Source of the DNA: Argyresthia goedartella
Lineage: Eukaryota; Arthropoda; Insecta; Lepidoptera; Argyresthiidae
Assembly (NCBI GenBank): GCA_949825045.1
Contig: OX463813.1
Coordinates: 7,688,001-7,752,000, forward strand
Direction: 5' to 3'
Length of the DNA stretch: 64,000 bases
In this document: positions 34,201 to 37,200 of the stretch, one piece after another
Numbering within the stretch: the stretch's first letter is position 1
Layout of the letters: each line of letters opens with the position of its first letter
The notes under the pieces: model-generated
Told to the model about the DNA's origin: nothing
The model's database searches: none
What the model saw: the letters and a program-made list of their open reading frames with translations, nothing else
Made by a program: the position numbers and the translations under genes

Positions 34201-37200
34201 TAGTTTCATAACAATTACACTAGATCAAATACCCATTTTTGATATTATTAAGTTTTTGGTGGTTAATAAGGGTCACCCCCTTATTTTATTTGACCACCAC
34301 ACAGGCACATACTGCTTCTAACCCCACACTAGGGTTCCCTGTGTCGTTCCTCGGAAAAAGTACCATCACACACATATAAACATCCAACACCTGTGTTTTA
34401 AATCCCCAGCCGGGGATCGAACCCGGGACCTCTCGACATAAAATACATTTTATCACACGGTTTATTGTTTCAGATTCATGTCCGAATCGGGCGTGATCGA
34501 CGTGTTCGTGATGATGGGCGACCAGCCGGCCGACGTCTTCCGGCAGTACACTAAGCTGACGGGCACTGCGCCATTACCGCCTGTGAGTATACTGATGTGT
34601 GTGATGAGGGGCGACCAGCTGGCCGACGTCTTCCGGCAGTACTCTAAGCTGACGGGCATGGCGCCATTACCGCCTGTGAGTATACTGATGTGTGTGATGA
34701 GGGGCGACCAGCTGGCCGACGTCTTCCGGCAATACACTAAGCTGACGGGCACTGCACCATTACCGCCTGTGAGTATACTGATGTGTGTGATGAGGGGCGA
34801 CCAGCTGGCCGACGTCTTCCGGCAGTACACTAAGCTGACGGGCATGGCGCCATTACCGCCTGTGAGTATACTGATGTGTGTGATGAGGGGCGACCAGCTG
34901 GCCGACGTCTTCCGGCAGTACTCTAAGCTGACGGGCATGGCGCCATTACCGCCTGTGAGTATACTGATGTGTGTGATGAGGGGCGACCAGCTGGCCGACG
35001 TCTTCCGGCAATACACTAAGCTGACGGGCACTGCACCATTACCGCCTGTGAGTATACTGATGTGTGTGATGAGGGGCGACCAGCTGGCCGACGTCTTCCG
35101 GCAGTACTCTAAGCTGACGGGCATGGCGCCATTACCGCCTGTGAGTATACTGATGTGTGTGATGAGGGGCGACCAGCTGGCCGACGTCTTCCGGCAATAC
35201 ACTAAGCTGACGGGCACTGCACCATTACCGCCTGTGAGTATACTGATGTGTGTGATGAGGGGCGACCAGCTGGCCGACGTCTTCCGGCAGTACTTTAAGC
35301 TGACGGGCATGGCGCCATTACCGCCTGTGAGTATACTGATGTGTGTGATGAGGGGCGACCAGCCGGCCGACGTCTTGCGGCAGAACACTAAGCTGACGGG
35401 CACGGCGCCATTACCGCCTGTGAGTATACTGATGTGTGTGATGAGGGGCGACCAGCTGGCCAACGTCTTCCGGCAGAACACTAAGCTGACGGGCACTGCA
35501 CCATTACCGCCAGTGAGTATACTGATGTGTGTGATGAGGGGCGACCAGCTGGCCGACGTCTTCCGGCAGTACTCTAAGCTGACGGGCATGGCGCCATTAC
35601 CGCCTGTGAGTATACTGATGTGTGTGATGAGGGGCGACCAGCCGGCCGACGTCTTCCGGCAGAACACTAAGCTGACGGGCACGGCGCCATTACCGCCTGT
35701 GAGTATACTGATGTGTGTGATGAGGGGCGACCAGCCGGCCGACGTCTTCCGGCAGAACACTAAGCTGACGGGCACTGCACCATTACCGCCTGTGAGTATA
35801 CTGATGTGTGTGATGAGGGGCGACCAGCTGGCCGACGTCTTCCGGCAATACACTAAGCTGACGGGCACGGCGCCATTACCGCCTGTGAGTATACTGATGT
35901 GTGTGATGAGGGGCGACCAGCTGGCTGACGTCTTCCGGCAATACACTAAGCTGACGGGCACTGCACCATTACCGCCTGTGAGTATACTGATGTGTGTGAT
36001 GAGGGGCGACCAGCTGGCCGACGTCTTCCGGCAGTACACTAAGCTGACGGGCATGGCGCCATTACCGCCTGTGAGTATACTGATGTGTGTGATGATGGGC
36101 GACCAGCTGGCCGACGTACCGCCTATGAATATATTCAGCATCACGTCATCACCACTCGAACCACTGTTGCGAAGAGGTCTTTTTTTATCTATAGCGCCAA
36201 TCCCCAAGATCCCTTCCAACCGCGTCCAGTGCGATCCAGTAGATCCTGATAATATCGCGACTATGATATAGTAGTTATCGGCAATAAATCATTTTCTCTC
36301 TCAAATGGTTACATTTAGTGGTTATACGTTCGGAGCTGCTGGTTTGATCCCCGGTGCTGACCATGTATTACTGAGGTAAGTCAAAGCCAACAGGTTAATA
36401 TAAATTATCTTAACCTGTTGGCTCTGATAGAAACCTTCCATAAGAGAAAATAAAATGTATAGTCGCAGCCCCCTGGCTCTGAAAGAGAGACTTTCCATAC
36501 GAGTAGATACGCATTATATTCTATCCTGATAGAGAGACTTTGTATGGAAACTCACACGTTTATTTTTTATTGGGAACTGTACTTTGACTGCCTATAAATA
36601 TATGAGACCTAAATACATGAGGCAAAGGATCACGAAATGAAACAGAGGTAACAATAAAGAACTGATTATAATTGTCATTAGTTTTCAAGTAATTCCTCAT
36701 TTAGCAAACATCGTCGAGTATTTTCGCTGGCCGCCATGACAACTCGATTTTTTATCGCCATATCAAATAACATCTATCGAGTGAGCCAACGGTTGGGCGC
36801 TGACACCCAAGCCTACAGATTAAGTACATTAGTTCAGACATTCTAACGAAGAGAAGATACCTTCATATATTCATAGCGTATTGAATTACTGTGTGATCGT
36901 GAGCGTCACTGTTTCTCTCTCACCCCTTATGGGAAAAGGCGTTAAGCTATATTTTATTTTGTAATTTTTATTTGTTGGTGTTTTACTTTTCAAAGGTTTG
37001 TTAAATTATAATTGAGAAAAAAGTTACATAAAAAAACATTTTCATCTCAAATTAACTACTGTGCCCTAAATTTTACACTCAACTTCATGGAGTCGCCTCG
37101 CTCCGCTCCGCTTCGCTTCGGCTCCATGTTTTAGCCTAACATATAAATAGATAAAGTCGTGATAACCTAACAAACCTAACTTTAGTATCCGGATAGGATA

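What the first reader, a model, noticed from the sequence alone, without database searches (positions are those of the whole stretch)
34474..36115. Exon 8 of GANAB amplified with its splice donor: 17 in-frame alternative 5' splice sites
The 93-bp unit contains the end of a coding exon and a consensus donor (CCT|gtgagtat). Sixteen further units keep the donor, the phase and an open frame. Use of the first donor gives the normal enzyme; use of donor k would add k x 31 residues at the junction of the N-terminal beta domain and the catalytic barrel. That all units remain stop-free and in phase is partly forced by 93 being a multiple of 3, but it makes a length-variable protein or a donor-competition regulator possible.
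Basis: partly seen in the sequence, partly recalled or inferred. Interest (0 to 1): 0.92.

Follow-up and report, generated by a model that had tools for sequence, protein, structure and literature searches.

The report
Splice-donor minisatellite behind GANAB exon
In this genome, likely a moth's or butterfly's, the end of an exon of the sugar-trimming enzyme gene GANAB, together with its splice donor, stands 17 times in tandem, and because seven other genes show the same layout, six of them without an open reading frame through it, the cell is predicted to use only the first donor and to remove the rest as intron.

Summary
Seventeen donors, identical from +1 to +8, stand exactly 93 bp apart after a GANAB coding exon, stop-free and in phase; the search of the assembly found the array once. 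The same gene holds a second donor-spanning array (45 bp, 44 donor positions, 32 out of frame) and an old third one (stop at codon 2). Among 25 donor arrays inspected elsewhere in the genome, 7 start at an exon confirmed by homology: KMT2C/D-type, CDC20/Fizzy, gamma-tubulin, MED15, DHX35, PFU/PLAA and a WD40 protein. Use of donor 2 would keep an open frame in only 3 of these 10 arrays, and unit length is a multiple of 3 in 4 of 9 (chance expects 3). The in-phase 93 bp is best read as luck. My reading: a minisatellite born across a 5' splice site and tolerated because the first donor is likely used alone, as reported for human factor VII intron 7. No RNA was available, so donor use is inferred. 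New is the recurrence: one gene hit three times, eight genes in one genome. Eight paper searches listed no report of that.

The parts
34474..34582 (+). GANAB coding exon, ending ..TKLTGTAPLPP|
   Evidence: aligns to neutral alpha-glucosidase AB
34508..36117 (+). 93-bp minisatellite, 17.3 copies; unit = last 69 bp of the exon plus first 24 bp of the intron
   Evidence: TRF, unit register
34583..34590 (+). Donor 1 (GTGAGTAT), predicted to be the one used
   Evidence: sequence; use is inferred
34676..36078 (+). Donors 2 to 17, every 93 bp, in phase with donor 1, no stop between
36095..36132 (+). Truncated 18th copy with a dead donor (ATGAATAT at 36125)
37619..37758 (+). Next GANAB exon (KFSLAYHQCRWNYYDQ..)
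31097..31241 (+). Earlier GANAB exon, ending ..VPVMYAHG|; donor 1 at 31242
31242..32058 (+). Old, diverged donor-spanning array: copies of exon end and donor at 31242, 31419, about 31613 (ATGAGT, lost), 31736 (GTGACT), 31827, 31968
   Evidence: TRF rows
52384..52497 (+). Later GANAB exon, ending ..TLVVTLDAN|
52491..54459 (+). 45-bp donor-spanning array: 44 donor positions from 52498 to 54429, 42 GTRAGT and 2 ATGAGT; 32 of 44 out of frame with the first
   Evidence: TRF
55097..55206 (+). GANAB exon after the 45-bp array (NTAHGTLYIDDGETFEYK..)

Best explanation
This is a minisatellite whose 93-bp unit carries the last 69 bp of a GANAB exon and the first 24 bp of its intron, so that 17 equal splice donors follow one another, of which only the first is likely used while the rest are removed as intron. 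Shown: the array, the equal donors, two more donor-spanning arrays in the same gene, and seven more at homology-confirmed exons of other genes of this genome, mostly with copies that would stop or shift the frame. Inferred: the acceptor 109 nt before donor 1 pairs with the first donor transcribed (exon definition or 5'-to-3' donor scanning); each further copy then lies in the intron, is hidden from selection, and expands and mixes like any minisatellite. A tandem duplication of an exon's 3' end would be invisible only if it brings the donor along, which would explain why such arrays recur. The in-phase 93 bp would be a one-in-three coincidence.
For: Only order and distance to the acceptor tell the donors apart: all 17 are the same from +1 to +8 and over the 24 intron bases. 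Use of donor 2 would give a stop or a frameshift in 7 of 10 homology-confirmed arrays; in KMT2 all 10 later donor positions lie behind an in-frame stop. Unit length a multiple of 3 in 4 of 9 arrays, P=0.35. The joined GANAB and KMT2 exons match solved proteins without an insert; 116 of 117 homologues have none at this junction. The copy next to the intron body is truncated and its donor dead. Precedent: in human factor VII intron 7, only the most upstream donor of a row of 37-bp repeats is used (PMC6627357, passages seen).
Against: No RNA: donor use is not shown. The 93-bp array itself is fully open and in phase, and donor 2 would make an exon of ordinary size (202 nt). All 13 variable positions lie in the exon-derived 69 bp and none in the 24 intron bases (p=0.015), which could hint at a kept donor; KMT2 does not repeat this (donors GTGAGT, GTAAGT, GTGTGT, GTGAGC). 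A donor-over-acceptor bias, which the tolerance argument predicts, is not established.
Confidence: 0.8

Rival explanations
1. Later donors are used at times, and the array makes a protein of variable length.
For: The 93-bp array is stop-free and in phase through 17 donors; the donors are equal; donor 2 gives an exon of 202 nt.
Against: The neighbouring arrays of the same gene do not keep frame; only 3 of 10 confirmed arrays would; copies change residues that relatives keep, such as Y to N in DVFRQY in 4 of 17; no relative shows an insert.
Confidence: 0.1
2. The array acts in RNA: many U1 sites at the head of the intron bind U1 and raise expression or guard the intron against early 3'-end cleavage.
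For: 42 GTRAGT sites in the 45-bp array and 17 in the 93-bp array of one gene; donor part unchanged in 17 of 17 copies of the 93-bp array. That U1 protects introns is recalled, not from a call.
Against: Nothing here tests it; donors decay in the old array and at array ends.
Confidence: 0.06
3. The last donor is used and the array is a repeat-protein segment of a long exon.
For: Open frame over the 93-bp array.
Against: It would need a 1597-nt exon and 496 extra residues in a conserved enzyme; no listed homologue has any insert; the same layout in KMT2 has a stop in copy 2.
Confidence: 0.02
4. Assembly artefact: the copy number is wrong.
For: Long tandem arrays are hard to assemble; no reads were available.
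Against: Copies differ at 13 positions in mixed combinations, the contig is 39.8 Mb long, and similar arrays stand at many places.
Confidence: 0.02

Closest known systems
Human F7 intron-7 37-bp repeats (factor VII)
   Same: The donor lies in the first of a row of near-identical repeats; only the most upstream donor is used normally (PMC6627357, passages, citing Borensztajn et al. 2006, which is not held).
   Different: One gene with 37-bp units there; here 93-bp and 45-bp units with 17 and 44 donor positions, three arrays in one gene and arrays in at least seven more genes. Donor use is measured there and inferred here.
Intron gain by tandem genomic duplication (AGGT model)
   Same: Tandem duplication of a coding stretch that carries splice signals.
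   Different: There the duplication makes a new intron; here it multiplies the donor of an existing one. Only search listings seen.
Alternative or tandem 5' splice sites
   Same: Several donors for one acceptor.
   Different: Known cases are two or a few sites with measured use (PMC2423196, passages); here tens of equal sites, use unmeasured.
Ordinary intronic minisatellites
   Same: Tandem array with mixed variant copies; pure intronic ones lie in the same window.
   Different: The unit contains coding sequence and a full donor.

Membership tests
Minisatellite | Head-to-tail units of about 10 to 100 bp in an array | tested here: met
   TRF 93 bp x 17.3 and 45 bp x 43.8
Minisatellite | Copy number varies between individuals | not testable with these tools
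   one assembly only
F7-type donor-spanning repeat | Each unit carries the 5' splice site and the first copy joins the real exon | tested here: met
F7-type donor-spanning repeat | Only the most upstream donor is used | not testable with these tools
   no RNA; indirect support from frame and stops
   93-bp array: 0 stops up to donor 17; not met in the 45-bp and the old array
   8 nonsynonymous to 5 synonymous, p=0.37 against neutral: no constraint detected, low power
   unit a multiple of 3 in 4 of 9; donor 2 open and in frame in 3 of 10 (with 53 and 58)

The most novel reading that the evidence does not exclude
This genome carries a whole class of exon-end/donor minisatellites: 5' splice sites are a niche where tandem duplications of coding sequence survive and grow, because splicing takes the first of up to dozens of equal donors. 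The arrays are a genome-wide natural experiment on how the spliceosome chooses among identical donors, and their dozens of U1 sites also shield the introns behind them from early 3'-end cleavage.
Probability: 0.2. Interest if true: 0.85.

Novelty: new variant of a known kind. Interest (0 to 1): 0.6.

Why it matters
What tells one splice donor from an identical neighbour is usually tested with engineered genes. Here nature offers arrays of 11 to more than 40 near-equal donors in at least eight genes of one genome, several of them housekeeping genes. If only the first is used, order of transcription or distance to the acceptor must outweigh donor sequence, and RNA from one individual would show it. 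It also warns annotators: open, in-phase arrays at exon ends can be mistaken for repeat proteins.

Tried and rejected
Motif excess. GTGAGT triples showed no excess over the same pattern read backwards (1699+1857 against 2423+1756). AGGTRAGT triples did, 2.7-fold to 4.9-fold in rows. Rows are copies, long arrays and a dispersed 38-bp satellite weigh heavily, and by a rough estimate of mine true donors are a sizeable share of AGGTRAGT sites, so I claim no hotspot.

Acceptor asymmetry. TTTTNCAG triples had no excess (107+77 against 419+193). Of 28 acceptor places listed I fetched 20; none showed exon sequence in the unit by frame length and by eye. No family search was run on them, and for four (L082-L085) less than about 150 bp beyond the last acceptor was held. 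L098 ends about 20 bp before a likely terminal exon but is intronic. By my rough estimate one or two exonic ones were expected, so the asymmetry is not established.

Frame selection over arrays: rejected, 4 of 9 unit lengths divisible by 3.

Not counted as confirmed: exon-like ends at L004, L062, L066 (no Pfam match I trust, no PDB match), L069 and L076 (Pfam only) and L104 (no search). The other 12 of the 25 inspected arrays do not look coding. L067 gave a sub-cutoff Pfam match (DUF7730) that I do not trust. Protein 5 was my wrong joining of frames of two unrelated loci (L073, L064) and is dropped. An array over an exon was seen at 0 of 30 myosin loci.

Not inspected: 11 of 18 places, the 38-bp satellite, most, and all that lies beyond the first rows listed, as each pattern list is cut.

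Papers: eight searches were answered; two searches showed part of their hits. Opened, passages only: PMC6627357 and PMC2423196.

Full report
What is there. The window lies in an unnamed 1.1-Gb genome of 89 contigs. Its GANAB protein is 74% identical to that of Eumeta japonica; of the 40 best homologues, the 33 that carry a species name are all moths or butterflies, and rank 41 is a caddisfly (the placing of these species is recalled). A coding exon at 34474-34582 ends CCT|GTGAGTAT, and this end is repeated in tandem: 17 donors, first at 34583, last at 36071, each exactly 93 bp from the next. The unit is 69 bp of exon and 24 bp of intron. Reading on from the exon meets no stop before donor 17. 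A truncated copy with a dead donor ends the array. The search of the assembly found it once. The exons before and after join without a gap against solved neutral alpha-glucosidase AB.

The same gene shows it three times. After a later exon (..TLDAN|) stands a 45-bp array with 44 donor positions, 42 of them GTRAGT, the first two GTAAGT. Two copies are 43 bp long, so 32 of 44 positions are out of frame with the first, and a stop comes before position 30. After the exon ending ..VPVMYAHG an old, diverged array repeats exon end and donor six times between 31242 and 31968: four copies keep GTGAGT, one reads GTGACT, one ATGAGT. Reading past donor 1 meets a stop at codon 2.

The rest of the genome. 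Five searches for three full donors (AGGTRAGT) at spacings between 38 and 148 bp gave 200 to 482 rows each, against 75 to 114 for the pattern read backwards. Rows are copies, not arrays, and the looser GTGAGT pattern showed no excess. I looked at the first donor of 25 arrays: L062-L081, L002, L004 and L102-L104. At 7 of the 25 an exon of a known protein family ends at the first donor: a KMT2C/D-type SET domain, CDC20/Fizzy WD40, MED15, a PFU domain as in PLAA, and a WD40 protein (it looks like WDR44, a recalled label), gamma-tubulin and DHX35. Six more look coding but are unassigned, and 12 do not look coding. All ten arrays listed were inspected, but 11 of 18 places were not, and each list shows only the first rows, from the first contigs.

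What frame says. With the three GANAB arrays this makes ten confirmed donor arrays. Use of donor 2 would leave an open frame in three (GANAB 93 bp, GANAB 45 bp, CDC20/Fizzy). Six would meet a stop and the WD40 one would shift the frame. In KMT2 all ten later donor positions lie behind an in-frame stop, inside the SET domain. The unit is a multiple of three in 4 of the 9 arrays with a defined unit, P=0.35 for one third. So these arrays are tolerated whether or not frame is kept. The simplest account is that later donors do not serve to make protein, and the in-phase 93 bp needs no function.

Mechanism. All 17 donors are the same from +1 to +8, and the 69 bp before them nearly so; only order and distance from the acceptor differ. 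I infer that the first donor transcribed, 109 nt from the acceptor, is paired first. [quoted passage not shown] 2006, which is not held). Once hidden in the intron, copies are free to expand and mix: the 17 copies differ at 13 positions in mosaic combinations, with identical copies at ranks 2, 5, 7 and 12 and at 3, 6 and 8.

Evidence that points the other way. The 13 variable positions of the 93-bp array all fall in the exon-derived part, p=0.015 (counts, p); this is one test among several, and the KMT2 donors do vary. With donor 2 the exon would still be of ordinary size (202 nt). An array over an exon was seen at 0 of 30 myosin loci, so the layout is not common per exon, and three in one gene is unusual. 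Whether arrays favour donors over acceptors is open: 0 of 20 fetched acceptor arrays (of 28 listed) were exonic by eye, but few were expected.

Known or new. Donor-spanning repeats are a known kind through factor VII. I file this as a variant because of the numbers (17 and 44 donor positions), the three arrays in one gene and the recurrence in seven more genes. Eight paper searches listed nothing on such a class, in a library that lacks most subscription journals.

Verdict. Real and confirmed as sequence; likely inert in the protein; most interesting as one of a recurrent class. Donor use remains to be measured.

Noticed in passing
window 38666-39246 and 42238-42814: An inverted copy of a stretch holding the GANAB exon WCWPGSSSYLDFLNPAV.. 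lies about 3 kb downstream on the other strand, 99.1% identical over 581 bp (frames): a recent inverted duplication or an assembly fold-back.
   Followed up: partly
L098, G000:C16:5401200-5402200: A 53-bp intronic array with TTTTNCAG in each unit ends about 20 bp before the acceptor of a likely terminal exon (RFAEVFGHMALKSVEFRADPLQYREAGG..).
   Followed up: partly
L004 to L031, G000:C1:15510852-15515899: 105-bp array after a coding-looking exon (..ELDAVLDSVVGNRKDCFISVRG): 44 donors in the part held, all 105 bp apart, with the first in-frame stop before donor 25. The gene is unassigned.
   Followed up: partly
window 45928-47160: A 410-codon open frame on the + strand inside a GANAB intron, perhaps from a mobile element; not searched.
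   Followed up: no
window 17985-18303, 50859-51602, 55661-55937, 60022-60293: Further minisatellites (33, 32, 42 and 33 bp) in or around the gene; those at 17985 and 60022 look like one family in opposite orientation. The 32-bp one lies in a GANAB intron and does not span a donor.
   Followed up: no
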